Source of the DNA: a virus
IMG/VR virus record: IMGVR_UViG_3300021091_004950
Coordinates: 1-24,450 of that record
DNA: 24,450 nt
Direction: 5' to 3' (one strand)
Both the position numbers and the translations under genes were made by a program. Positions 425 to 15,300 of this stretch are shown here, piece after piece (within the stretch, counting starts at the first letter, position 1; each line of letters opens with the position of its first letter). Under the pieces are notes generated by a model. It was not told the DNA's origin, did no database searches, and saw nothing but the letters and a program-made list of their open reading frames with translations.

Positions 425-1378
425 ATGGCTGATACAACTATATCTGGTTTAACGTTGGGTGTACCTCCTGTAGGAGCTGTATTACCCTACTCCGACGGTA
501 CAATAACAAGAAAAACAACTACAGATAATATATTGGCCAATGCAGGGAACGTTGGTCTAGGTACAACATCTCCTACTTCTAAATTAACCGTTAGCGGTAG
601 TATTTATTCATCCGGACAGGGTAGGTTCGCGGGGTGGTATACCGGGGGTGATGGTGCGGGTCTGGCCACTGAAATAGGTACAAGCGGGGGGCAAGGATAT
701 CTTTATGCATTTAATAGGACAGCGAGTACATATGCGCCTATCAATATAGCAACAGGCAATGCAGGGTTACAAATTAATACAAATGGTGTTATTAATGCTA
801 CCGGTACTTTAAATTTAGCAGGCCCTTATAAAGGAACCATTCAAAGAGGTTCTTACGGTTCATTAACAATAGGTGGTTCTAATAACGGTTACTCGGGTAT
901 AGATTTTACAGATGCAGCTGCAACATTCATGATAAATAATTCTGATGGTTTATGTGGTGTTTATAAAAATAATAACTCTTGGGCATGGTATTTTGATGGA
1001 AGTGGTAATTTAATAACTGGATCAGTTCCATGGAATAGTATTACGGGTAGACCTAAAATTGCATGGGCAAGATTTAATGGTAGTGGTGCTATACAAGCTG
1101 GTAGTTCTGGAGTGAATTCTGTGACAAATAATCCTTCGGGATTAGGTACTAATATCTATAGAATTAATGTTACTGGTGCTGGGTTTAGTAATGCAAATTA
1201 CTCTGTTACAGGAATGACACGTTTTAATAATTATACAAATTCAATGCAGTTGTATACCGGTACGGGTGAAAATACTACATATAATCCAACATCAACTGTT
1301 TTTTATGTTAGTACAAATAATGATCAAGGAGGCGGTATTAACACTCATACAAATTATATTCAAGTTATAGGTACATAA
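425..1378 (+). CDS. Tail-fibre / adhesin-like structural protein
   Basis: 317 residues, probably an appendage protein exposed on the virion. The N-terminus (MADTTISGLTL, about residues 1-40) is shared with the next gene and may be an attachment module. Residues 42-57 contain NVGLGTTSPTSKLTVSGS, a motif common in phage and bacterial fibre proteins. The rest is rich in Gly, Asn, Ser and Thr with no cysteine cluster or enzyme motif. The C-terminal third, beginning KIAWARFNGSGAIQ, resembles the receptor-facing C-terminal domain of other phage fibres, usually seen as AWVNFNGTG followed by short beta strands. It begins an adhesin-rich run preceded by a late-type promoter and ends one base before the next ATG. 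The exact virion position is unknown. Confidence 0.7.
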   Translation: MADTTISGLTLGVPPVGAVLPYSDGTITRKTTTDNILANAGNVGLGTTSPTSKLTVSGSIYSSGQGRFAGWYTGGDGAGLATEIGTSGGQGYLYAFNRTASTYAPINIATGNAGLQINTNGVINATGTLNLAGPYKGTIQRGSYGSLTIGGSNNGYSGIDFTDAAATFMINNSDGLCGVYKNNNSWAWYFDGSGNLITGSVPWNSITGRPKIAWARFNGSGAIQAGSSGVNSVTNNPSGLGTNIYRINVTGAGFSNANYSVTGMTRFNNYTNSMQLYTGTGENTTYNPTSTVFYVSTNNDQGGGINTHTNYIQVIGT

Positions 1379-1379
1379 T

Positions 1380-2258
1380 ATGGCTGATACAACAATATCT
1401 CAATTAAATTTAGTAACACCAATTGGTGAAGCATCTATACCTTTGTCGCAAAATAGTAATACTAGTCGAACCTTAGCATCTAGTTTAACAGCAAATTGTT
1501 TGCCTGTTGGTTCTCTTTATTCAGTTCAATATTTAATTGTAGGCGGTGGAGGTGGAGGTGGACAAGATTACGGAGGAGGCGGCGGAGCAGGGGGATTTTT
1601 AGAAGGTAATACACAAATTGCAGTAGGTCAAACATATCCGGTTATTGTTGGTCTAGGAGGTACAAGGGAATATCAATATATTGTTAACAAAAATGGCGGT
1701 AATTCGTCTTTTAATAACGTTATTGCTTATGGAGGGGGGAAGGGCGGTGGACATAATGCAAATATATATACTCAGGATACATTAGGCGGTAAAGATGGAG
1801 GTAGTGGTGGTGGGCCATATAGGGGCTATCAAAATATTAGCGCTGCTAAAGGCAGAGGCATCTTCGGTCAAGGTAATGATAGTGCCCCAGGGTCTGCAGA
1901 TTACGGCGGTGCAGGAGGTGGTGCAGGAGGACCTGGTGGAATAGATAATAATGGCGGTCCAGGAAAATATTCAACTATTACAGGGACAAACACGTATTAT
2001 GCTAGTGGCGGTACTATAAAAAATTCTAATGTTGCTCTACTAGATAAACCCTCCAATACAGGGTACGGAGGCGATGCTAATTATGGAGGTTGGGGTGTAG
2101 CGAGTGGAGGAGGATCAGGTATAGTAGTAATTGCTTATCCTGGCGCGCCGCGTGGTACTGCATATCTTAATTCTACAACAATACTAGTACCTGATACAAC
2201 ATCTAGACCTGGATATACAGTACATAAATTTTTACAAGGGGGCTATTTTATAGCATAA
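1380..2258 (+). CDS. Glycine-rich tail-fibre tip / adhesin-like protein
   Basis: 292 residues. The first about 40 residues (MADTTISQLNL and following) are paralogous to the N-terminus of the upstream fibre gene. From residue 51 the sequence reads YLIVGGGGGGGQDYGGGGGAGG and continues as glycine-rich loops to about residue 245. It closes with GSGIVVIAYPG and, near the end, GYTVHKF. This pattern is typical of glycine-rich host-recognition domains of phage fibres, which fold as polyglycine-II-like or loop-rich tips. The gene starts 2 bases after the upstream stop and its TAA lies inside the next late-promoter motif. A receptor-binding role is inferred from composition and context. Confidence 0.7.
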   Translation: MADTTISQLNLVTPIGEASIPLSQNSNTSRTLASSLTANCLPVGSLYSVQYLIVGGGGGGGQDYGGGGGAGGFLEGNTQIAVGQTYPVIVGLGGTREYQYIVNKNGGNSSFNNVIAYGGGKGGGHNANIYTQDTLGGKDGGSGGGPYRGYQNISAAKGRGIFGQGNDSAPGSADYGGAGGGAGGPGGIDNNGGPGKYSTITGTNTYYASGGTIKNSNVALLDKPSNTGYGGDANYGGWGVASGGGSGIVVIAYPGAPRGTAYLNSTTILVPDTTSRPGYTVHKFLQGGYFIA

Positions 2259-3666: not shown

Positions 3667-3695
3667 TTGATTTTTTGGTACTATTTGATTATAAT
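3667..3695 (+). promoter_or_regulatory. Sigma70-like promoter of queD
   Basis: TTGATT (3667-3672), a 17-base spacer and a perfect TATAAT (3690-3695). This is the best-formed host-type promoter in the window. The ATG of queD is 28 bases downstream of the -10 box, leaving room for a short leader with a weak purine stretch (AGAAAGA). Confidence 0.7.
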
Positions 3696-3723: not shown

Positions 3724-4434
3724 ATGAAATACGAAAGTACTAAAATTATTGAGTTAGGTAGTTGTGCATTTAGACAGTGGAAAGCTAATCACAGTCATTG
3801 CAAGTTTATTCATGGTTATAGACTACAAGCTAAGTTTTGGTTTGGTTGCAATGAACTTGATGAAAAAAATTGGGTAGTAGATTTTGGTGGGTTAGATGAT
3901 CTTAAAAATATTTTACAAAAACAATTTGATCATACATTATGTGTAGCAGATGACGATCCATTGCTAGAAGGATTTAAATCATTACATACTGCTGGAGGCT
4001 GTGATCTACGCGTAATGCAAGGCGGTGTAGGGATTGAGAAAACCGCGGAATGGTGCTTTAATACGGCGAATGAATATTGCCTAAACATTACAAATGGGAG
4101 ATGTTGGGTAGAAAAAGTAGAAGTTTGGGAGCATGAAAAGAACTCGGCTATTGTAACTAAAAATGACAATACATTCAAAGTAAATGTACAAAATTCATTA
4201 GAAGTAAATAATACGGAGACAAGAGGTGCACCTCAAAATCATGTAAGGAATTTTATGGCAGATATTGCTGAGCAAACTGGTGTTAATTTAGAGACAGTAA
4301 TAAAGAACCCACCTCCAATTAGTAATAAACCTGGTGCTGGGCAGCCGCACCCTCAACCGGCTCCAGTTAAAAACAAAGTCACATCTGGGTGGTCTGACTT
4401 ATTCGGCGGTACATCTTGGGGCGCAAATCGCTAA
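3724..4434 (+). CDS. queD: 6-carboxy-5,6,7,8-tetrahydropterin synthase (QueD) with C-terminal extension
   Basis: QueD converts dihydroneopterin triphosphate to 6-carboxytetrahydropterin, the second step of 7-deazaguanine synthesis. Residues 14-33 (CAFRQWKANHSHCKFIHGYR) hold the zinc-binding and catalytic region, with Cys26 and His30. The usual HGH is HGY, a form I associate with alphaproteobacterial QueD. WVVDFGGLDDL (50-60), FDHTLCVADDDP (68-79) and the Glu/Trp-containing core near 100-140 complete the domain. The family is about 120-150 residues. Here the core ends near 150 and is followed by about 75 extra residues: a helical part (NHVRNFMADIAEQTGVNLETV), a Pro-rich linker and a terminal SGWSDLFGGTSWGANR. 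The stop abuts the stop of convergent phoH. Core assignment is strong; the tail's role is unknown. Confidence 0.9.
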   Translation: MKYESTKIIELGSCAFRQWKANHSHCKFIHGYRLQAKFWFGCNELDEKNWVVDFGGLDDLKNILQKQFDHTLCVADDDPLLEGFKSLHTAGGCDLRVMQGGVGIEKTAEWCFNTANEYCLNITNGRCWVEKVEVWEHEKNSAIVTKNDNTFKVNVQNSLEVNNTETRGAPQNHVRNFMADIAEQTGVNLETVIKNPPPISNKPGAGQPHPQPAPVKNKVTSGWSDLFGGTSWGANR

Positions 4435-5440: not shown

Positions 5441-6184
5441 ATGGACAATACTTTATTTTTAAGTGACGATAAGATTTTCTACACATTAGAAGGCGAGGGT
5501 GAATATGTAGGTCGACCCTCTGTCTTTATGAGGCTATCAATGTGTAATTTAACATGCAAGGGATTTGCATCTGCAGATTCACCTAATGGGTGCGATAGTT
5601 TTATCAGTTGGTCTGTTAAGAATAGAATGTCTTTTGATGAAATATTTGATTATATGTCACAAAATAAATATAATTGTTATTTAAAAGACGGAGCTATTCT
5701 TAAGATTACCGGTGGTGAGCCTCTTATTCAACAAAAACAACTTTTAAATTTTATAGAGGCTTTTATAGCAAGATATGCATTTTGCCCTATTATAGATTTT
5801 GAGACGAATGCAACTATTTTACCAGATGATGCTTGGGTTAAGAAATATTCTGCCACTTTTACCACTTCACCTAAATTAAAAAATAATGGTGACCCTGAAG
5901 AAAAAAGATATAAACCTGCAGTACTTAGATGGCATGTCGACAACGGCTCGGGGTTTAAATTTGTTATTAATGATAATAAAGATTTTGAAGAAGTATTAGA
6001 AAAGTATATACATAATACAGAGGTACGTGTACCTTATAATCGTGTATGGCTAATGCCTTGCTGTGGTAGTAGACAAGAGCATACTGAGAAAGCCGCTCTA
6101 GTAGCAGAACTATGTAAACAACACAACATAAAATTTAGCCCTAGGCTTCAATTAGTTATCTGGGATAAAGCATTAAAGGTATGA
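5441..6184 (+). CDS. queE: 7-carboxy-7-deazaguanine synthase (QueE), radical SAM enzyme
   Basis: QueE converts 6-carboxytetrahydropterin to 7-carboxy-7-deazaguanine (CDG), the common precursor of preQ0, queuosine and 7-deazaguanine DNA bases. The N-terminus reads FYTLEGEGEYVGRPSVFMRL (13-32), followed by CNLTC (Cys35, Cys39) and GCD (Cys51). The 4Fe-4S cysteines are therefore spaced C-x3-C-x11-C instead of the canonical radical-SAM C-x3-C-x2-C. QueE is known for such cluster-loop variation. ITGGEPL (89-95) is the SAM-binding GGE motif. The length of 247 is near normal (about 210-250). The last 4 bases overlap the ATG of the next ORF, so this gene heads an operon of three. Confidence 0.92.
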   Translation: MDNTLFLSDDKIFYTLEGEGEYVGRPSVFMRLSMCNLTCKGFASADSPNGCDSFISWSVKNRMSFDEIFDYMSQNKYNCYLKDGAILKITGGEPLIQQKQLLNFIEAFIARYAFCPIIDFETNATILPDDAWVKKYSATFTTSPKLKNNGDPEEKRYKPAVLRWHVDNGSGFKFVINDNKDFEEVLEKYIHNTEVRVPYNRVWLMPCCGSRQEHTEKAALVAELCKQHNIKFSPRLQLVIWDKALKV

Positions 6185-7090: not shown

Positions 7091-7303
7091 ATGGCTAATT
7101 TTAACGATAAGTATGAAGAGCTTTTAGAGAGTTTTAAAAGCATTAAAACTATAAAGAGAGAATTTTATCCTAAAAACTTTAAGCTATCTGAAGAGTTTGT
7201 TAAGGCATTTAAAAATGAATATGGCCGCTTAGTTAAAGAAGGTCATCATCCTCGTAAAGCTTTAGCCCGGATTAATAAAGCTTTATTATTTCACGCCAGT
7301 TAA
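7091..7303 (+). CDS. Hypothetical basic helical protein, 70 aa
   Basis: Not recognised. The protein is helical and basic, with FKSIKTIKREFYPKNFKL in the middle and HHPRKALARINKALLF near the C-terminus. No membrane segment or cysteine motif. The start is supported by the late motif 5 bases upstream. Its stop shares bases with the stop of the minus-strand fibre gene (4-base convergent overlap). Late timing suggests an assembly or packaging-stage role, which is only inference. Confidence 0.65.
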   Translation: MANFNDKYEELLESFKSIKTIKREFYPKNFKLSEEFVKAFKNEYGRLVKEGHHPRKALARINKALLFHAS

Positions 7304-8040
7304 ATTATTATATTACTGGGAAAAAAGTATTGACCAGCACTTATAACGTACGTTATAAGAATACGCGCATTAACGGTTAAATTTGGTACATTACGTACAG
7401 GGAAGTTAACCGTAAATAAAAGCCCGTTTGCACCGTCGTTTTGAATATTATTTACATACGGAAAACAAGATAAGGGGCCGTTTACAGAAATACTAATATG
7501 ATACGGCTTGACTTGAGAAACAGAAATAAAAGGAAAATCATTAAAAAAGCTGCCAATAGTAATATTAACACTATCTGAATTTGGATTAGCTCCTGCTTGT
7601 CCAACCTTATCAATAGTTCTCGTATAAATGCCGTTTTGCCAGGATGTTGTAGCGGGTACGAACGTTTGAGTTATATAATTGTAATCATCATCAGCGCGAG
7701 CTATGTAAGTAGCGCTTGTTACAAGACCTCCGTTAAGAGTAAACCGATTATAAAAACCATTTAATCCGGTATAACCTGCAGTATTATTTGCATAAAATAA
7801 TGGGGAAGTTACGTAATTTGTTGCAGAAAGAGTAGAATATTGTGCTTGGTTACCTGTAACACCACCTACAATGGTTGCGTTACCAACAGCATCAGTCTTT
7901 ACAACATTAAAATTTTCGAAAGTAATAGTCTGTGTACCATTTTCAGTTTGTAAAATCAATAAATCAGATGTTACCGCTTCTTGCGTTTGCGGTAAATTAC
8001 TAATGTTGACGTAATTACTATTAGAAGAGTTATTTGCCAT
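7300..8040 (-). CDS. Tail-fibre / appendage-like structural protein
   Basis: 246 residues from ATG 8040 (MANNSSNSNYVNISNLPQ). An ATG at 8046 would add Met-Ile, but it directly abuts the TATAAATA promoter, so it is probably upstream of the RNA start. The N-terminal NISNLPQTQEAVTSDLLILQ followed by GTQTITFENF resembles the short N-terminal module of many phage fibres (xISxLP, then DLLxxxxNGxTxxxxxxxx). The rest is rich in Asn, Thr, Ser, Gly and aromatics, with beta-strand periodicity and no cysteine motif. It lies alone on the minus strand, between an operon of small genes and the sugar cassette, convergent with the former and divergent from the latter. Appendage function is inferred. Confidence 0.65.
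   Translation of the reverse strand: MANNSSNSNYVNISNLPQTQEAVTSDLLILQTENGTQTITFENFNVVKTDAVGNATIVGGVTGNQAQYSTLSATNYVTSPLFYANNTAGYTGLNGFYNRFTLNGGLVTSATYIARADDDYNYITQTFVPATTSWQNGIYTRTIDKVGQAGANPNSDSVNITIGSFFNDFPFISVSQVKPYHISISVNGPLSCFPYVNNIQNDGANGLLFTVNFPVRNVPNLTVNARILITYVISAGQYFFPSNIII
7340..7359. repeat. Perfect 20-bp palindrome
   Basis: CTTATAACGT is followed directly by its exact reverse complement. The site lies about 40 bases before the 3' end of the minus-strand fibre gene and encodes part of LITYVIS, so it is also coding sequence. It could be a binding site for a dimeric protein or a hairpin near the convergent gene ends. It lacks the GC stem and T-run of a standard terminator. Confidence 0.6.
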
Positions 8041-8061
8041 TATCATTATTTATACTATAAT
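8034..8061 (+). promoter_or_regulatory. Sigma70-like promoter of the sugar cassette
   Basis: TTGCCA (8034-8039, 5 of 6 matches to TTGACA), a 16-base spacer and a perfect TATAAT (8056-8061), 12 bases before the ATG at 8074. Its -35 box overlaps the start codon of the divergent fibre gene. This is the only recognisable promoter for the seven-gene cassette. Confidence 0.55.
8047..8054 (-). promoter_or_regulatory. T4-type late promoter TATAAATA of the minus-strand fibre gene
   Basis: An exact TATAAATA on the minus strand (8054-8047). It ends 6 bases before ATG 8040 and abuts ATG 8046. It lies inside the spacer of the opposing early promoter, so the two probably exclude each other. Confidence 0.6.
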
Positions 8062-8073
8062 ACTTAAATTAAT

Positions 8074-8898
8074 ATGGATAAAATAGGCATAGGTATAGTT
8101 ACGTGTAATAGACATAAATTTTTTCTTAAATGTTTTAGATCAATACCTAACGATTATTTACTAGCCGTTGTTAATGATGGAGCAGATTTTGAAGACATTA
8201 ATAAGCTACAAGAAGAAAAACCATTTACATACTTTCATAATAATGTAAATTTAGGAGTAGGAAAATCGAAAAATATCCTTTTTAGGTATCTATTAGATAG
8301 TGATTGTGATCATATTTTTATAATTGAAGATGATATCATTGTGAAAGATCCTTCTGTATTTAAAAAATATATTGAATTAAGAAATATTACCGGTATACAG
8401 CATTTTAATTTTGGTTATCATGGACCAGCTAATAGAAATAATATATCAAAAGGCCCGCCTACACCTAGATATGTTATCGATTACGGTAAGATTCAACTAG
8501 CTATCAATGCCAATAGTGTAGGTGCTTTTTGTTACTATACAAAAGAAGTATTACAAAAAGTTGGTCTTATTGACGAAGATTATACCAATGCATTTGAGCA
8601 CGTTGATCACGATTATAGAATCTATAAAGCCGGCTTTGGTACACCGTATTGGAATTTTTCAGATTTAGCAAATAGTTATGATTATCTTGACGAAATAGAG
8701 TGTTCAGAGAATAGTAGTGCGATTAGACCGAGATCGGATTGGATGGATAACATAAAAAACGGTGCTAAATTATTTACTGAAAAACATGGCTACTCACCTG
8801 CATGGCAAAACATGGTACCTGATACACCAAAGGAGAAAGTAATTAACTTTCTAAAAGAAATAAAGAAAAAATATGAAAATAAGTCTTTTAGTTCCTAG
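8074..8898 (+). CDS. GT-A fold glycosyltransferase, GT2-like
   Basis: 274 residues, first gene of the sugar cassette. It begins IGIGIVTCNRHKFFLKC (4-20), the typical N-terminal strand of GT2 enzymes. NNVNLGVGKSKNILF (56-70) corresponds to the nucleotide-binding segment, and IFIIEDDIIV (81-90) supplies the metal-binding acidic motif EDD (85-87) in place of DxD. FEHVDHDYRIYKAGF, near residue 195, matches the catalytic-base and acceptor-side ED/H motif of GT2. No membrane segments, so a cytoplasmic enzyme. Donor and acceptor are not predictable. The 3' end overlaps the next gene by 26 bases. Confidence 0.8.
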   Translation: MDKIGIGIVTCNRHKFFLKCFRSIPNDYLLAVVNDGADFEDINKLQEEKPFTYFHNNVNLGVGKSKNILFRYLLDSDCDHIFIIEDDIIVKDPSVFKKYIELRNITGIQHFNFGYHGPANRNNISKGPPTPRYVIDYGKIQLAINANSVGAFCYYTKEVLQKVGLIDEDYTNAFEHVDHDYRIYKAGFGTPYWNFSDLANSYDYLDEIECSENSSAIRPRSDWMDNIKNGAKLFTEKHGYSPAWQNMVPDTPKEKVINFLKEIKKKYENKSFSS

Positions 8899-9625
8899 CC
8901 GAGAGCGGTTAAATCTAAAGCTTACTTTAATAAGCTCAATTATTACTTCTGCGAAAAACATTAATAATATTGATCTTGTTTTTGGAGTAGATGAAGATGA
9001 CCCCACACGTGAAATTGTTTATAAAATAGCAGATGCTATTCCGTTTGTACGTATTGTAGATATAAAAAATAATGGAAAATTTATTGGTATTAACCGTATA
9101 TGGAATATTTTAGCTGCTAATACAAAAGAAGAAATATTTGGCTATGTAGGTGATGATATGATTTTTATGACACCTAATTGGGATGAAAAAATTTTAAATG
9201 AATTTAATAGTAAGAATTTACCAGAAGATAAAATTAAATTAATTCATTGTTACGATGGCCATAGAGAGCGCGATGAAATATGTGTTAATGCGTTTGTACA
9301 TAGAAGGTATTATGAAATTTTAGGTTATTTTACAAAAGAAGATTTTTTAATTAATTGGTCCGATCAATGGATGTATCAAACATTTAAAGCGTTTAATAGG
9401 GTAAAATGGATTCGCGACATACACATACAACACAATCATTGGATTTATGGTGGTAGAAAGAGGGATAAAACTGCTGATAGAATGTTAAGCGATAATCATG
9501 ACCGTATAAGTGATGGGTTATGGTATTCCTTGGCCCCCCAGCGCATAGAAGCAGTAGAAAAACTAGCTAGTTATTTAAAAATTGAACCTGATTGGACTAA
9601 AGTTGACAGACGCACAACACCATGA
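8873..9625 (+). CDS. Glycosyltransferase-like protein, GT-A fold
   Basis: 250 residues. MKISLLVPSRERLNLKLTLI is a GT-A style N-terminus. FGVDEDDPT (37-44) and GYVGDDMIFMTPNW (90-103) provide acidic metal/nucleotide motifs, with GDD at 93-95 equivalent to DxD. Further downstream, DEICVNAFVHRRYYE and IHIQHNHWIYGG resemble acceptor-side segments. No membrane helix or signal peptide. It overlaps the upstream gene by 26 bases and the next by 4, so all three are probably translated from one mRNA. The family is less certain than for its neighbours, but a sugar transferase is the best reading. Confidence 0.7.
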   Translation: MKISLLVPSRERLNLKLTLISSIITSAKNINNIDLVFGVDEDDPTREIVYKIADAIPFVRIVDIKNNGKFIGINRIWNILAANTKEEIFGYVGDDMIFMTPNWDEKILNEFNSKNLPEDKIKLIHCYDGHRERDEICVNAFVHRRYYEILGYFTKEDFLINWSDQWMYQTFKAFNRVKWIRDIHIQHNHWIYGGRKRDKTADRMLSDNHDRISDGLWYSLAPQRIEAVEKLASYLKIEPDWTKVDRRTTP

Positions 9626-10278
9626 AAGTTTATACTCATTATAGCGATAGTCATAAAGAAATTTATAATGATTTTTTTATTCAAAGTCTTCGAAAGATAT
9701 ATTCTAAATCTGAATTAAAAATTCGCACGCTTTATCACGAGCAGACTACTGCAGAAGGTAGATTTATGTCTCCGGGGTGGCTTGAAGCAATGAATTATAA
9801 GATTTCTGTAATATTAACAGCAATAGATGAATGTAGAGGTAATTGGTTTATCTTTTCAGATTGCGATGTACAATTCTTTTCTCCATTCTTAGATGATATT
9901 AAAGACGCACTAGAAAACCAAGATATTGTTTGCCAAGAAGATAGAGGAACGTTATGCGCCGGGTTTTTTGCATGCCAAGCTACTGACAAGACTAAATTAT
10001 TATGGGAACAAATAAAAATAAATTTTAGAGCATTAGTAAACGATCAAGCTGCATTAAACTATTATAAGCCCTCAATAAAAAGCAGTACATTAGATAAAAA
10101 TAAGTATTATACTGTTGGAAATTTTTTTGAAAATCCCAATGGCACGTTTGTATGGGATAATGTAACTAATATAGTACCACCAAAGAATATTCTTGTACAT
10201 CATGCAAACTATGTAGAGGGTACAAATAATAAGCTTAAGCTTTTAAAAATGATAAAAAACAATATTACAAATGTCTAA
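9622..10278 (+). CDS. Nucleotide-diphospho-sugar transferase, GT77-like
   Basis: 218 residues. FIFSDCDVQFF (77-87) holds the DxD metal motif (DCD, 80-82), and VNDQAALNYY (139-148) matches the conserved NDQxxLN motif of the Nucleotid_trans/GT77 family. LCAGFFACQ (111-119) corresponds to the family's NxGFF-type strand, and ILVHHANY near residue 191 resembles the terminal His-containing motif. A soluble inverting or retaining transferase using a nucleotide sugar is likely; the sugar is unknown. The start codon overlaps the upstream stop (ATGA), and the 3' end overlaps the next gene by 8 bases. Confidence 0.75.
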   Translation: MKVYTHYSDSHKEIYNDFFIQSLRKIYSKSELKIRTLYHEQTTAEGRFMSPGWLEAMNYKISVILTAIDECRGNWFIFSDCDVQFFSPFLDDIKDALENQDIVCQEDRGTLCAGFFACQATDKTKLLWEQIKINFRALVNDQAALNYYKPSIKSSTLDKNKYYTVGNFFENPNGTFVWDNVTNIVPPKNILVHHANYVEGTNNKLKLLKMIKNNITNV

Positions 10279-11092
10279 TTATATTGAATTTCAAGAATTT
10301 TCTTTCTCTTCTGTTACTGATAGCGTAAAGACAGAGGCAAATGCTTTTAATTTAATAAGCAAAAATAATGTAAATTTAAAAGAAAATATTTATATAGGTA
10401 TTCCGCTAGCAGATATTATTAATAAACTTGGATTAAAGACTGCACAAAGTGTTATAGATAGAATAGAATCTAAAATAAAACAAAAAAAAATTTTTGTATG
10501 TCAGCATATTTTTGTTAACAAGCTTAATTTTTATAATAATACGGTATTTACCCCTCATGCAGAACTAAGCGATTCATTTAAAATAATTCCTCACTACAAC
10601 CTATATTTTAAAAAACAAGATTATAAAGAGTTTATTAAGCGTAAATGTTTAGTTTCTTTTTTAGGGGCGCTAAATTCACACCCTACCAGAATGCAATTAA
10701 AAAATATTAATTCTGATCTTACACCTATTCTTGATACAGGATCTTGGCATTTTGAAAAACAAAAATTTGAACAAGAAAAAAACTCTGCTCTTTATAAAAA
10801 ACTACTTGTCAATTCAAAGTTCAGCCTATGTCCAAGAGGTACCGGTGCGAATACAATTAGATTTTATGAAAGCATTTCAATAGGTTCAATTCCAATTATT
10901 TTTAATGATATTAAAGTGCCAATAGAAATAAAAGACTGCGTAATAAGGTATGACATTAATAATATACGCAATTTGACAAACTATTTAGAAACTGTAAATA
11001 ACGCTGGAGAAATGAGCCAAATATTATATAATTTTTATTGGAATAATTATGATAACAACATTATACATAAACTTATAGAATCCCATGTGTAG
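10271..11092 (+). CDS. Exostosin-family glycosyltransferase (GT47-like)
   Basis: 273 residues. The C-terminal half contains SKFSLCPRGTGANTIRFYES (182-201) followed by IGSIPIIF, the signature of exostosin/GT47 and related GT-B proteins (FxLCPRGxGxxxxRxxEAxxxGxIPVI). LVSFLGALNSHPTRMQL (127-143) fits the family's (F)xFxGxxxxxxR segment. The N-terminal about 110 residues are a less recognisable half-domain. No membrane anchor, unlike eukaryotic exostosins. It overlaps both neighbours by 8 bases. Family call is good; substrate unknown. Confidence 0.8.
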   Translation: MSNYIEFQEFSFSSVTDSVKTEANAFNLISKNNVNLKENIYIGIPLADIINKLGLKTAQSVIDRIESKIKQKKIFVCQHIFVNKLNFYNNTVFTPHAELSDSFKIIPHYNLYFKKQDYKEFIKRKCLVSFLGALNSHPTRMQLKNINSDLTPILDTGSWHFEKQKFEQEKNSALYKKLLVNSKFSLCPRGTGANTIRFYESISIGSIPIIFNDIKVPIEIKDCVIRYDINNIRNLTNYLETVNNAGEMSQILYNFYWNNYDNNIIHKLIESHV

Positions 11093-12401
11093 CTTTTTAT
11101 TTACAAACAAAAAAATTAATAATATTGATACAGCTAACTTTTTTCTTCAGAAAAGAGGACCAGATAAGACCTCTGTATTGAATGTAGATGGGTTTACCTT
11201 TATTCATAACTTACTCTCGATAACCGGAGAGTTTTGCGAACAACCGTTAATCGATGATGGTTTGTTTTTGGTTTTTAATGGTGAGATTTATAATTACAGT
11301 CAAAATAAAAACTATCTAAGTGACGGGTATTATATTCTAGATTGTTATAAAGAATATGGTGAAGATTTTATAAAATATCTAGATGGAGAGTTTGCTCTAG
11401 TTTTATTAGATAAAAACAAAAACAAAATTTATTTTTCGGGGGATATTTTTCAGACAAAACCAATCTATGCAAGTTTAGAATCTGATAATATAGGAATTTC
11501 TTCTTATAAAAGCGCATTAAGTGCTCTAGGGTTTAATAACATTAAAAGGTTGATACCAAACAATAGTTACACTTACGATATAGCTACAAAACAAGTACAA
11601 TATAGTAAAATACATGAATTTAATTTAATACAAAACGTCGACACCTTTGATTTGTGGGAAAATGCATTTTTAAATTCACTTTCAAAACGCATAAAAAATA
11701 CACGTGGCCCTATTGTTGTACCTATGAGCAGCGGTCATGATAGTGGTGTAATCGTTTGCGGTCTTAAGCAATTATCATATAAAAACTATTGTATATATTC
11801 TATTACAGGCGATGAAGATGAAAGTGTTATTTTTAATAGATTTAATCAAGTTGAATGTATTAAAAAATATTCAACAAAATATATTTCAAGTGATGAAATG
11901 AACAATATAGTAAAACATATTACTGAATCAGTAGAGCCATTTTTTTACGGAGTTGATCATACTGCCTCTACATCTGGTCTTAATGATCCAGGAGCTCGAG
12001 GGTTGTATAAAATTTTATCGGATGTAAAGAAAGATTTAAATGTAAAAGTGCAGCTATCCGGTCAAGGAGGAGATGAAATAACTAGTAACGTACAAACATA
12101 CGGCTTTGGTGGTAAGTTTAATCCGCCGTCTTTTACGGACGACTTGTTTGCTGTTTTTCCGTGGAATAACTTTTATTACGGTTCAAATAGTAGTTACCTT
12201 GCAAAAGAAGAATCAATTGCAGGAAGTCTAGGAATAGAAACAAGATACCCTTTATTAGACAAAGAAGTTGTACAACAATTCTTAAGCTTAACTCCTCGCT
12301 TAAAAAATAGTACGTATAAAGCACCAATTACACATTTTCTTCAAAAATATAATTTCCCGTTTAATTGTACAAAGAGAGGCTTTAATATATTAGTACAATG
12401 A
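11085..12401 (+). CDS. Asparagine synthetase B-like glutamine amidotransferase
   Basis: 438 residues against about 550-650 for typical AsnB. Cys2 after Met is the expected glutaminase nucleophile. RGPD (24-27) and NGEIYNY (65-71) mark the class II amidotransferase domain. The synthetase domain has an ATP-pyrophosphatase loop SSGHDS (215-220) where SGGxDS is canonical, plus SGQGGDE (325-331) and IETRYPLLD near 385. AsnB-like proteins in sugar clusters often amidate uronic acids or other carboxylated sugars using glutamine and ATP, so that is a likelier role here than asparagine supply. It overlaps neighbours by 8 and 4 bases. The truncated length and the Gly-to-Ser change in the P-loop make activity worth testing. 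Confidence 0.85.
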   Translation: MCSFLFTNKKINNIDTANFFLQKRGPDKTSVLNVDGFTFIHNLLSITGEFCEQPLIDDGLFLVFNGEIYNYSQNKNYLSDGYYILDCYKEYGEDFIKYLDGEFALVLLDKNKNKIYFSGDIFQTKPIYASLESDNIGISSYKSALSALGFNNIKRLIPNNSYTYDIATKQVQYSKIHEFNLIQNVDTFDLWENAFLNSLSKRIKNTRGPIVVPMSSGHDSGVIVCGLKQLSYKNYCIYSITGDEDESVIFNRFNQVECIKKYSTKYISSDEMNNIVKHITESVEPFFYGVDHTASTSGLNDPGARGLYKILSDVKKDLNVKVQLSGQGGDEITSNVQTYGFGGKFNPPSFTDDLFAVFPWNNFYYGSNSSYLAKEESIAGSLGIETRYPLLDKEVVQQFLSLTPRLKNSTYKAPITHFLQKYNFPFNCTKRGFNILVQ

Positions 12402-12976
12402 TTACGAGGTTAGGCACAGATTACGGCGGCCATTCAATTGAACTGTCTCTTTTAAATAAAGAAAGTATAGTTTATTCTGCAGGTATAGGTACCGATATTT
12501 CGTTCGATAAAGCAGTTATAGAGCAAACTGAGTGTATAGTTCACGCATTTGATCCAACAACTAAATCTATTGCATGGGTTCAAAACCAACCAAAATTACA
12601 AAATTTTTGTTTTTATGATATTGGTATTTCTGATTTTAATGGTATAGCTACCTTTGAGCCACCTGCTGTTGAGAGTCACGTCTCTTTTAAAGAATCAGCT
12701 ACCGGTAATTATAAATTTCTAGTAAAAAAACTCTCTACTATAATGAATAAATTAAAGCATAATGTCGTAGACTGCCTTAAGCTAGACATTGAAGGTTCTG
12801 AATACGGTGTATTGAGTGATATTATAGATGAAAATATTAATGTAAAGCAAATTTGCTTAGAATTTCACGGAAGATCGGAATCAGAAATAAAAGATTTTTT
12901 AGAAAATATTAAATTTTTTGATATTTATAATCAAGCTAACAAAGAAAGATTAGATTATTTGTTTATTAGAAAATGA
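12398..12976 (+). CDS. FkbM-family SAM-dependent methyltransferase
   Basis: 192 residues. VYSAGIGTDISFDKAV (25-40) is motif I for S-adenosylmethionine binding, with AFDPTTKSI (50-58) as the post-strand-2 acidic motif. VDCLKLDIEGSEYGVLSDI (124-142) is the FkbM hallmark. The C-terminus is short and lacks the usual extension, so the protein is compact. FkbM enzymes usually O-methylate sugars, which fits a cassette of glycosyltransferases. It overlaps the upstream and downstream genes by 4 bases each (ATGA), showing translational coupling. Confidence 0.88.
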   Translation: MITRLGTDYGGHSIELSLLNKESIVYSAGIGTDISFDKAVIEQTECIVHAFDPTTKSIAWVQNQPKLQNFCFYDIGISDFNGIATFEPPAVESHVSFKESATGNYKFLVKKLSTIMNKLKHNVVDCLKLDIEGSEYGVLSDIIDENINVKQICLEFHGRSESEIKDFLENIKFFDIYNQANKERLDYLFIRK

Positions 12977-13836
12977 GTATATTTTCTTCTACTAATCATA
13001 TATCCGGACCCGTTCATTACAGAAACGGTGTTAAAATTTCATCTTTAGGTAATAATATTTTACACTTACTTTATATTCTGCATTTTGCAAAGCGTAAAAA
13101 TATAGACTTTTTTGTTTCTCGTGACACTCAGTTAGAGAATATATTTGATCTATCCGCATTTAAAAAGCAAATTCCCGCTGATGCGGTTTGTTTATTTGCT
13201 GAAGAATTCGGAGGCGAGATAGATGAATTTGTTGAAAAGGATAAAAGAAACAACACAAACGCATATAATTTATTAAACAATAATATTTCATTACCCGAAA
13301 ACTTCTGGGTTGAGGGGTGGTTTTATAATTATTCTCTTATGCCAACCTATGATATTTTTAAAAACCTTAAAATTAAACAAGAAATGATAGATCAATTTAA
13401 TAAAGATTTTAGTTTTTTAGAAAGAGAGGATAATCTATCATTACACTATAGGGGGACAGATTTTCAAAATCATGCTATCGGTTGGGGTGATATGAGATTA
13501 CCTCAAAAATATTTTACTGACAGTTTAGAGTATGCTAAACAATTTAATTTTAAAACTGTTAATATTTTTTCTGATCAAAAAGATACTATTATAGAATATG
13601 TTAAGCCTTTTAAATCAGATTTTTCTTTTAATTTAATTTCTAATGACTGCTACATGGACTGGCTTTGTTTACATAAATCAAAATGTCTAATTGCTTCTAA
13701 TTCAAGTTTTTGTTGGACTGCTAGCTTGTATAATAAAAAGTTTTTGACTCAACCTAAGAATTACTTACTTTATAATTTTGATACCGATAAAAGTGTACCA
13801 ACAGACATTTATATTAAAGAAAGTAAAATTTTATAA
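12973..13836 (+). CDS. Fucosyltransferase-like glycosyltransferase (GT11-like)
   Basis: 287 residues. LSLHYRGTDF (155-164) corresponds to the HxRxxD motif that binds GDP-fucose in GT11 and related enzymes. VNIFSDQKDTI (196-206) matches the FSDD-type strand, and LIASNSSFCWTASLYN (239-254) matches the NSxFSWW motif. LGNNILHLLYIL near the N-terminus resembles the family's GLGNxxFQ segment. The tryptophan pair is not fully conserved, so the donor could be another sugar. It is the last gene of the cassette; after a 34-base gap a new TATAAT promoter starts the next unit. Confidence 0.75.
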   Translation: MSIFSSTNHISGPVHYRNGVKISSLGNNILHLLYILHFAKRKNIDFFVSRDTQLENIFDLSAFKKQIPADAVCLFAEEFGGEIDEFVEKDKRNNTNAYNLLNNNISLPENFWVEGWFYNYSLMPTYDIFKNLKIKQEMIDQFNKDFSFLEREDNLSLHYRGTDFQNHAIGWGDMRLPQKYFTDSLEYAKQFNFKTVNIFSDQKDTIIEYVKPFKSDFSFNLISNDCYMDWLCLHKSKCLIASNSSFCWTASLYNKKFLTQPKNYLLYNFDTDKSVPTDIYIKESKIL

Positions 13837-13870: not shown

Positions 13871-14458
13871 ATGATAATTAAAGATATTAAGTCGTACGAC
13901 GGAAAGCTTCTACATTCTAGATTTGCATATAAATTTTTTAGAGATAGGACTCTACCGATAGGCAATATTATTGCATTTCGTGCCCCGATGTATGTAGAAG
14001 CAGAAGGAATGATAGATTCCGAAGACGTTATTAACAATGATTTTATTTACAGTGATGATGCAATTAATTTTTTATGGGAGATTCCTAATCTAGATTCATT
14101 CGGTGCAGTTGCTTATCAGCGCCTACTTAATACACAGATTGCGCAAATTCTTTCTAATAATTACTTAAAAGCTCCTATCGAGGTCGATGGCGATGATTTA
14201 ATTGTTCACAAAGAACATACTCAAGGTGGAATTACACAGCCAAAAGGTAAGTGTTCAGTAAGCATTACATACGTAAAGAATGGTGTTGCTCTAGGCCATA
14301 CAGGAATTAATGTGAGTGCTGGTAAAAAAGCCCCTGCCTTCGCTTTTTCTACTAATTTAACAGATGATCAAGTTAATAGCTTTATGGGAGATGTTGTTAA
14401 GTTGTTTTACGAATTAAATGATAATTTGTTTATTGCCACTACAAAAGTTATTTGTTGA
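13871..14458 (+). CDS. DUF366-family protein (possible 7-deazaguanine enzyme)
   Basis: 195 residues, the usual length of DUF366, a family best known from archaea. Matching segments are YDGKLLHSRFAYKFF (9-23), IIAFRAPMYVEAEGMIDSED (33-52), IYSDDAINFLWEI (59-71), AYQRLLNTQIAQIL (81-94), KCSVSITYVKNG and GHTGINV. No membrane segment or metal cluster. The family's biochemistry was long unknown. I recall, without being able to check, that a DUF366 protein was proposed as a deazaguanine-modifying phage enzyme (a CDG decarboxylase). That would fit FolE, QueD and QueE in the same window. It overlaps the next gene by 1 base. Family call is good; function is inference. Confidence 0.75.
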   Translation: MIIKDIKSYDGKLLHSRFAYKFFRDRTLPIGNIIAFRAPMYVEAEGMIDSEDVINNDFIYSDDAINFLWEIPNLDSFGAVAYQRLLNTQIAQILSNNYLKAPIEVDGDDLIVHKEHTQGGITQPKGKCSVSITYVKNGVALGHTGINVSAGKKAPAFAFSTNLTDDQVNSFMGDVVKLFYELNDNLFIATTKVIC

Positions 14459-14838: not shown

Positions 14839-15300
14839 ATGCCTTTAAATATTGATGTCTTACCTGTCCAAAAAAGTTTAATTGATTTAGCCGAATTACC
14901 CAAGAATTCATTTAATTCCGTTTTTTACGGATATAATTTAAAATCACTTTTAGATGATGTATTATTAGTTAAGTTTGCGGATGAAACAGAAGACGGTACA
15001 TCTATTGTTAGAAATGGTATAGTTGTTCCTATTAATGTTGACACAAAAGCATGGCGTATTGGGGAAATTATTTTAGCAGGCCCTAATGCAAAGCATACCA
15101 AGCCAGGCGATTTTGTTTGTTTCCCTAACAATTTAGGTATCCCGGTAGCTAATATTGATATAGATGGTTATGGCACTCTTAAGAAAGGCATATTCTTAAA
15201 CGAGCAAAGAATTTTTGGTGTATGCTCAGTACGAAAAGATAATGAAAGTGTCGCTAGCCACATTAAAAAATCTTCTTCTAACCAACGTAGCAGAAATTAA
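14839..15300 (+). CDS. GroES-like co-chaperonin (gp31-like)
   Basis: 153 residues. The core DDVLLVKFADETEDGT (39-54), GIVVPINVDTKAWRIGEIIL (60-79) and GPNAKHTKPGDFVCFP (81-96) has the GroES layout: a first beta strand with an exposed loop, then a G-x-V-x-x-G-type strand and a KxGDxVxFP turn. Phage co-chaperonins such as T4 gp31 replace host GroES so that GroEL can fold the large capsid protein gp23, which this phage encodes further downstream. N- and C-terminal extensions of about 35 and 25 residues are longer than in GroES (about 97 aa). The 3' end overlaps the next gene by 59 bases. Confidence 0.7.
   Translation: MPLNIDVLPVQKSLIDLAELPKNSFNSVFYGYNLKSLLDDVLLVKFADETEDGTSIVRNGIVVPINVDTKAWRIGEIILAGPNAKHTKPGDFVCFPNNLGIPVANIDIDGYGTLKKGIFLNEQRIFGVCSVRKDNESVASHIKKSSSNQRSRN

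What the first reader, a model, noticed from the sequence alone, without database searches (positions are those of the whole stretch)
8074..13836. Seven-gene sugar cassette in one overlapping operon
Five glycosyltransferases from different families, an AsnB-like amidotransferase and an FkbM methyltransferase overlap by 4-26 bases and share one promoter. The mix (GT2-like, GT77-like, GT47-like, GT11-like, amidation, methylation) looks like a pathway for a specific decorated oligosaccharide. No sugar-nucleotide synthesis or flippase genes are present, so donors come from the host and the acceptor is intracellular: a virion protein, modified DNA, or host surface precursors.
Basis: partly seen in the sequence, partly recalled or inferred. 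Interest (0 to 1): 0.6.

Follow-up and report, generated by a model that had tools for sequence, protein, structure and literature searches.

The report
Phage's swappable sugar-coat gene island
A T4-like phage carries seven overlapping sugar-attaching and sugar-trimming enzyme genes in a fixed genome slot whose contents are swapped between related phages, most likely to decorate the phage particle itself with a changeable sugar coat.

Summary
Seven same-strand genes, overlapping by 4, 8 or 26 bases, lie exactly at 8074-13836 of a T4-like phage fragment: GT2-like, PHROG-GT, GT77, GT47, AsnB-like, FkbM, GT11-like. But the seven-gene set is not the unit. In 21 related phages with the complete interval, the same slot (divergent fibre-like gene m12 / first transferase A ... 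DUF366) holds 3-18 co-directional, mostly sugar-related genes. 66 of the 97 gene clusters occur in one island only; A, m12 and DUF366 are always there. It is a hypervariable glyco-island with a conserved first enzyme. Acceptor: 162 of 166 island proteins lack membrane segments, and 18 relatives lack the initiating transferase, flippase and GtrA families, so no self-contained lipid-linked surface pathway. Searched relatives lack dCMP hydroxymethylase and DpdA families, against DNA. Distant relatives of A lie in flagellin glycosylation islands, between major-tail and tape-measure genes of a Cronobacter phage, and near relatives of Che8 gp110 (reported essential for capsid glycosylation). Best reading: cytoplasmic glycosylation of a virion protein, with the linkage sugar set by A and the outer glycan by the swappable interior; m12 is a candidate acceptor. 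No glycan has been seen; the host is unknown; host-surface modification remains the main rival.

The parts
7300..8046 (-). m12: fast-evolving fibre-like protein divergent from the island; conserved N-terminus, central helix, C-terminal beta-sandwich; candidate virion acceptor or receptor-binding protein
   Evidence: Present beside A in all 21 complete islands, 30-66% identity by BLAST; alignment; AF2 C-terminal domain mostly pLDDT >85; weak but recurrent Foldseek matches to H-type lectins, pyocin fibres and tail fibres, no E<0.001 in PDB; BFVD hits include tail-fibre proteins
8047..8054 (-). T4-type late promoter TATAAATA for m12 (minus strand)
   Evidence: conserved in nearly all the relatives' m12-A spacers
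8034..8061 (+). sigma-70-like promoter of the cassette (TTGCCA-16-TATAAT)
   Evidence: best match of the region, 11/12; -10-like element in 20 of 22 relatives
8074..8898 (+). A: GT2-like transferase (EDD motif), conserved left anchor, first gene of the island
   Evidence: in all 21 complete islands; found in 23 of 24 records searched
8873..9625 (+). B: glycosyltransferase (phrog_14945), second gene in many islands
   Evidence: 13 of 21 islands
9622..10278 (+). C: PF03407 nucleotide-sugar transferase (GT77 family), DxD motif
   Evidence: 5 of 21 islands
10271..11092 (+). D: exostosin-type GT47 transferase
   Evidence: 5 of 21 islands
11085..12401 (+). E: AsnB-like class II glutamine amidotransferase
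   Evidence: only otherwise in partial locus L004 (81%)
12398..12976 (+). F: FkbM-type methyltransferase
   Evidence: homologue follows E in L004 (61%)
12973..13836 (+). G: GT11-like transferase (HYRGTD motif)
13871..14458 (+). DUF366 protein: conserved right anchor with its own TATAAT-like promoter; not itself a sugar enzyme by family
   Evidence: in all 21 islands at 71-90% identity

Best explanation
The cassette is this phage's version of a hypervariable glycosylation island that its lineage keeps at one genome position. Soluble enzymes are made from one promoter and build an oligosaccharide in the cytoplasm on a virion protein. The conserved first enzyme A (with B in many phages) is inferred to add the linkage sugars to a common acceptor; the exchangeable interior (here C, D, G plus the E-F amidation/methylation pair) is inferred to extend and decorate the glycan, so related phages would differ in outer sugar coat. 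The neighbouring fibre-like protein m12 is the leading candidate acceptor, with capsid or tail-tube proteins next. Shown: gene content, fixed slot, anchors, interior replacement, absence of membrane and lipid-carrier families. Inferred: acceptor, order of steps, biological benefit.
For: Fixed slot with anchors and replaced interior: 21 complete islands, 3-18 interior genes, 172 of 172 co-directional, 97 clusters of which 66 occur in one island. Interiors include GT2, GT10, GT11, GT25, GT47, FkbM, CmcI, sugar dehydratases/epimerases and aminotransferases. No membrane segment in 162 of 166 island proteins, whereas bacterial polysaccharide clusters holding A homologues show 11-13-segment proteins. 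No PF02397, PF01943 or PF04138 in 18 relatives, controls positive. Context of A-family genes elsewhere: Tatumella between flagellin and fliA-like sigma genes; Pseudomonas near flgA/M/N; Cronobacter phage ENT47670 between major tail protein and tape measure; phage-like contig L134, A- and B-family genes side by side next to a tail-protein gene; Myrna gp234 four genes before gp238, a homologue of Che8 gp110, which is followed by a virion structural gene. A-family and Che8-gp110-like genes lie close together in five unrelated phages; Che8 gp110 is reported essential for capsid glycosylation and Myrna is reported to have glycosylated proteins (PMC12363180). In two relatives the gene after A matches the gp110-like profile (L084 2.9e-9, L011 1e-7). 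m12 and the island share a divergent spacer, stay together when the whole block is relocated in G013, and m12 similarity tracks island content beyond flanking-gene similarity.
Against: No virion, glycan or expression data. A itself does not match Che8 gp108-110 and A-to-phage-GT identities are only 21-31%, so acceptor inference by homology is weak. Some A homologues (Ignavibacteria) sit in lipid-linked polysaccharide clusters. Soluble transferases could still act on host lipid-linked precursors. The m12-island association is modest: partial r 0.54 (p 0.0005) falls to 0.30 (p 0.008) by ranks after collapsing one clade, and the C-terminal domain alone is not significant there (0.17, p 0.07). AAA28 and g11 are also linked to the island. 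The window and all relatives are fragments.
Confidence: 0.55

Rival explanations
1. Host-surface remodelling: the enzymes alter host lipopolysaccharide, O-chain or capsule precursors during infection, so that sister phages cannot adsorb and progeny do not stick to debris. m12 would be the receptor-binding fibre whose receptor the island masks, as in serotype conversion.
For: Glycosyltransferases in pelagimyophage hypervariable regions were read this way (PMC7029224). m12 looks like a fibre with a lectin-like tip, and a receptor-binding gene beside receptor-modifying genes would explain linkage and co-variation. The cassette has a TATAAT-type promoter while m12 has a late promoter, fitting action before assembly.
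Against: No flippase, initiating transferase or GtrA in 18 relatives; almost no membrane proteins in the islands. The nearest informative contexts of A are flagellin and phage head/tail loci.
Confidence: 0.28
2. DNA hypermodification: the enzymes add sugars to modified bases of phage DNA, as in T4 or recently described multi-sugar DNA modifications.
For: Phage multi-transferase DNA glycosylation exists (cited in PMC12619734; the primary paper was not read); QueD and QueE genes in the window show base-modification chemistry is nearby (QueE by similarity and position).
Against: No thymidylate synthase/dCMP hydroxymethylase family in 14 relatives and no TGT/DpdA family in 24, controls positive; A-family contexts are protein-linked. 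The Tet_JBP search had no positive control and is uninformative.
Confidence: 0.07
3. Ordinary cargo: an assortment of host-derived sugar genes gathered in a recombination hot spot with no single pathway.
For: Extreme turnover of interior genes; most clusters occur once.
Against: Near-exclusive sugar chemistry among recognised families, universal co-directionality, universal A, anchors kept across deep divergence and after relocation of the block, and purifying selection on A and B.
Confidence: 0.07

Closest known systems
Mycobacteriophage virion glycosylation (Che8, Corndog, Myrna)
   Same: Phage-encoded soluble glycosyltransferases; A belongs to a family whose members lie near Che8-gp110-like transferases in Myrna and four other phages
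   Different: Those systems show a few transferase genes; here a 3-18-gene exchangeable island with amidation, methylation and, in relatives, sugar-nucleotide synthesis. The window itself has no gp110-like protein
Bacterial flagellin glycosylation islands (PMC4875605)
   Same: Hypervariable sugar genes at a fixed site beside the gene of a filament protein; GT2, FkbM, DegT and sugar-synthesis genes; an A homologue sits in Tatumella's island
   Different: Phage genome; neighbour is a fibre-like protein, not flagellin; acceptor unproven
Host recognition cluster of pelagimyophages (PMC7029224)
   Same: T4-like aquatic phages with a hypervariable region rich in glycosyltransferases and fibre genes
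   Different: That cluster lies between VrlC and gp14; this island lies between AAA28/m12 and DUF366/gp62, is bounded by a conserved transferase, and shares only distant B homology with HTVC008M
Serotype-converting gtrABC cassettes
   Same: Phage sugar genes beside a putative receptor-binding gene (analogy from general knowledge)
   Different: No GtrA flippase and no membrane transferase here

Membership tests
Phage virion-protein glycosylation (Che8/Myrna type) | Soluble phage glycosyltransferase of a family tied to virion glycosylation | tested here: met
   A profile matches Myrna gp234 (7.5e-25), ENT47670 gp40, mEp390 gp54, FBKp24 176; family-level only, since gp234's own role was not verified
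Phage virion-protein glycosylation (Che8/Myrna type) | Che8-gp110-like transferase | tested here: not met
   No match in the window; present in relatives' islands L084 and L011
Phage virion-protein glycosylation (Che8/Myrna type) | Glycan on capsid, tail tube or fibre | not testable with these tools
   needs virions
Flagellin-type glycosylation island | Hypervariable sugar genes at a fixed site beside the acceptor filament gene | tested here: inconclusive
   Fixed site beside m12 met; m12 as acceptor unproven; not flagellin
Serotype conversion (gtrABC) | GtrA flippase / membrane transferases | tested here: not met
   PF04138 absent in 18 relatives; no membrane segments in A-G
Lipid-linked surface polysaccharide cluster (Wzx/Wzy type) | Initiating sugar-phosphate transferase and flippase | tested here: not met
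   PF02397 and PF01943 absent in 18 relatives, controls positive
Phage DNA glycosylation | Hydroxymethyl-pyrimidine or 7-deazaguanine insertion enzyme | tested here: not met
   PF00303 absent in 14 and PF01702 in 24 relatives; the window phage's own full genome is not held
Pelagimyophage host recognition cluster | Location between VrlC and gp14 | tested here: not met
   Island bounded by AAA28/m12 and DUF366/gp62, upstream of gp3 and gp20; gp14 and VrlC themselves were not located

The most novel reading that the evidence does not exclude
Lytic T4-like phages of uncultured bacteria maintain a serotype-like system for their own particles: one conserved transferase primes a virion fibre or tail protein, and a swappable cassette gives each lineage a different sugar coat, a phage counterpart of bacterial flagellin glycosylation islands that co-diversifies with the fibre gene next door.
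Probability: 0.38. Interest if true: 0.78.

Novelty: new variant of a known kind. Interest (0 to 1): 0.58.

Why it matters
Virion glycosylation has been demonstrated for a few mycobacteriophages. If this island glycosylates virions, it would extend the phenomenon to widespread uncultured T4-like phages and show it as a fast-evolving, cassette-exchanged trait. It also offers a testable alternative to the usual assumption that such gene sets in aquatic T4-like phages remodel host LPS.

Tried and rejected
The seven-gene order as a conserved pathway: rejected, relatives share the slot only. DNA acceptor via 7-deazaguanine (QueD/QueE in the window suggested it): no DpdA family in 24 relatives. DUF366 as part of a 7-deazaguanine modification pathway: literature search gave nothing useful. 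Tet/JBP search: no positive control, not used. m12 by sequence against PDB and phage records: no meaningful match; fold search only weak lectin/fibre-like hits. PDB search with G: only chance-level hits. tRNAs: found in two large relatives but not used for host assignment; host left open. C-terminal domain of m12 as the specific co-varying part: linear test suggested it, rank-based tests did not support it. Primary paper on mycobacteriophage virion glycosylation not held; cited through PMC12363180.
Full report
WHAT IS THERE. The window is a 24,450-base virus record from a T4-like myovirus: portal gp20, prohead protease gp21, gp22-like, tail sheath stabiliser gp3, gp62, PhoH, QueD and a QueE-like protein. 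The closest portal in 50,697 phage records is only about 33% identical, so no near cultured relative is held. Near-identical contigs (99.8-99.96%) occur in IMG datasets 3300020179 and 3300020578.

THE UNIT IS A SLOT. I fetched 80 relatives by portal and 20 further stretches and mapped them. In all 21 loci with a complete interval the order is AAA28 kinase, usually g11, m12 (opposite strand, sometimes duplicated), A, a variable interior, DUF366, then usually gp62 and the GroES-like gene. A (37-84% identical to the window), m12 (30-66%) and DUF366 (71-90%) are always there. The interior holds 3-18 genes over 2.2-14.9 kb, 172 of 172 on the same strand; 97 protein clusters, 66 found once. Of the window's interior genes B is in 13 of 21, C and D in 5, F and G in 1, E in 0 (E and F recur in the partial locus L004). 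In L008, whose portal is 95% identical, C, D and G are present at 60, about 30 and 53%, and D runs straight into G: the E-F pair is an inserted (or there lost) module. In G013 the whole block from AAA28 to gp3 lies some 70 kb from gp20 and is still intact.

CHEMISTRY. Pfam over 103 interior representatives gives GT2, GT10, GT11, GT25, GT47, FkbM, CmcI-type methyltransferases, GDP-mannose dehydratase/epimerase types, DegT aminotransferases and nucleotidyltransferases. PF00535 and GDP-mannose-dehydratase hits fall at or within about 5 kb of this locus, with one exception (G013:71737). In four records the dehydratase-type gene lies just outside the island, upstream of AAA28.

WHICH ACCEPTOR. (i) 162 of 166 island proteins have no predicted membrane segment, whereas three bacterial polysaccharide clusters containing an A homologue contain 11-13-segment proteins. 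(ii) PF02397, PF01943 and PF04138 are absent from 18 relatives of 34-199 kb while controls ring. (iii) PF00303 is absent from 14 and PF01702 from 24 relatives. (iv) A homologues in bacteria: Tatumella, between flagellin and a FliA-type sigma gene, the site described for enterobacterial flagellin glycosylation islands (PMC4875605); Pseudomonas, near flgA-flgM-flgN; Ignavibacteria, in lipid-linked polysaccharide clusters. (v) A homologues in phages: Cronobacter phage ENT47670, between the major tail protein and the tape measure; an Acidimicrobiales-bin contig that looks like a phage, with A- and B-family genes adjacent and next to a tail-protein gene; Myrna gp234. Che8-gp110-like genes (27-52% identical to Che8 gp110) lie within a few genes of the A-family gene in Myrna, mEp390, ENT47670, FBKp24 and prophiGD21-2. 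Che8 gp110 is described as essential for capsid glycosylation, and Che8, Corndog and Myrna as having glycosylated proteins (PMC12363180, citing a paper I could not open). In relatives L084 and L011 the gene after A matches the gp110-like profile; the window's own genes do not. Together this favours a virion protein, but it is inference by family context at low identity.

M12. The divergent neighbour is Ser/Thr/Asn-rich and Lys/Arg-poor, like the fibre-like g1. AlphaFold gives a low-confidence N-terminal half, a helix and a confident C-terminal beta-sandwich. Foldseek matches are weak (no PDB E below 0.001) but repeatedly H-type lectins and phage or pyocin fibres. The best BFVD hits include an L-shaped tail fibre protein. 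It has a TATAAATA late-type promoter, while A has a TATAAT-type element in the same short spacer. m12 similarity between phages tracks island content after correcting for DUF366 and AAA28: partial Mantel r 0.54, p 0.0005. By ranks and with one clade collapsed it is r 0.30, p 0.008, and the C-terminal domain alone is not significant. This fits m12 as acceptor, and equally m12 as receptor-binding protein whose receptor the island changes.

HOW IT PROBABLY WORKS. Early-type transcription yields soluble enzymes; A attaches a first sugar to a conserved acceptor; B and the interior enzymes extend the chain; E would amidate a uronic acid and F methylate (functions by family, inferred); donors come from host pools here and partly from phage genes in relatives. 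Late in infection m12 and other virion proteins are made, glycosylated in the cytoplasm and assembled. Exchange of the interior changes the outer glycan without touching the linkage step.

LIMITS. All records are fragments, so absences are not proofs. Host unknown. Gene calls in relatives were mechanical (ATG starts, longest non-overlapping). The membrane test is a simple hydropathy threshold. No experiment exists.

Noticed in passing
window 3724-4434, 5441-6184: QueD and QueE-like genes without any TGT/DpdA family gene in 24 relatives: preQ0-pathway genes presumably serve host queuosine or another use, not DNA insertion by DpdA.
   Followed up: partly
window 13871-14458: DUF366 protein is one of the most conserved genes of this lineage (71-90%) and marks the island's right edge; function unknown.
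   Followed up: partly
window promoters at 3690, 5428, 8056, 13859, 15981 versus 18476, 20294, 21853, 8047(-): Two promoter-like classes: TATAAT just upstream of enzyme genes (QueD, QueE, A, DUF366, helicase) and TATAAATA upstream of virion genes (gp20, neck, gp21, m12); the contrast was seen by eye and not tested statistically.
   Followed up: partly
window 14839-15300: GroES-like protein (phrog_3188) with a late-type motif upstream, probably a gp31-type capsid co-chaperonin.
   Followed up: no
window 425-2258: Two adjacent fibre-like proteins, the second with a Pfam Gly_rich_2 domain; relatives have several paralogues elsewhere.
   Followed up: partly
L134:5040-6998: In an Acidimicrobiales genome bin a phage-like contig has A- and B-family transferases side by side next to tail genes; possible virion glycosylation outside mycobacteriophages.
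   Followed up: partly
L144 (ENT47670 40111-42143): Two annotated glycosyltransferase genes lie between the major tail protein and the tape measure of a Cronobacter phage; one is Che8-gp110-like. A possible cultured test case for tail glycosylation.
   Followed up: partly
L085, L095, L102: m12 is duplicated in tandem in three relatives; in L085 and L102 the outer copy lacks the conserved MAIxxSNSN start.
   Followed up: no
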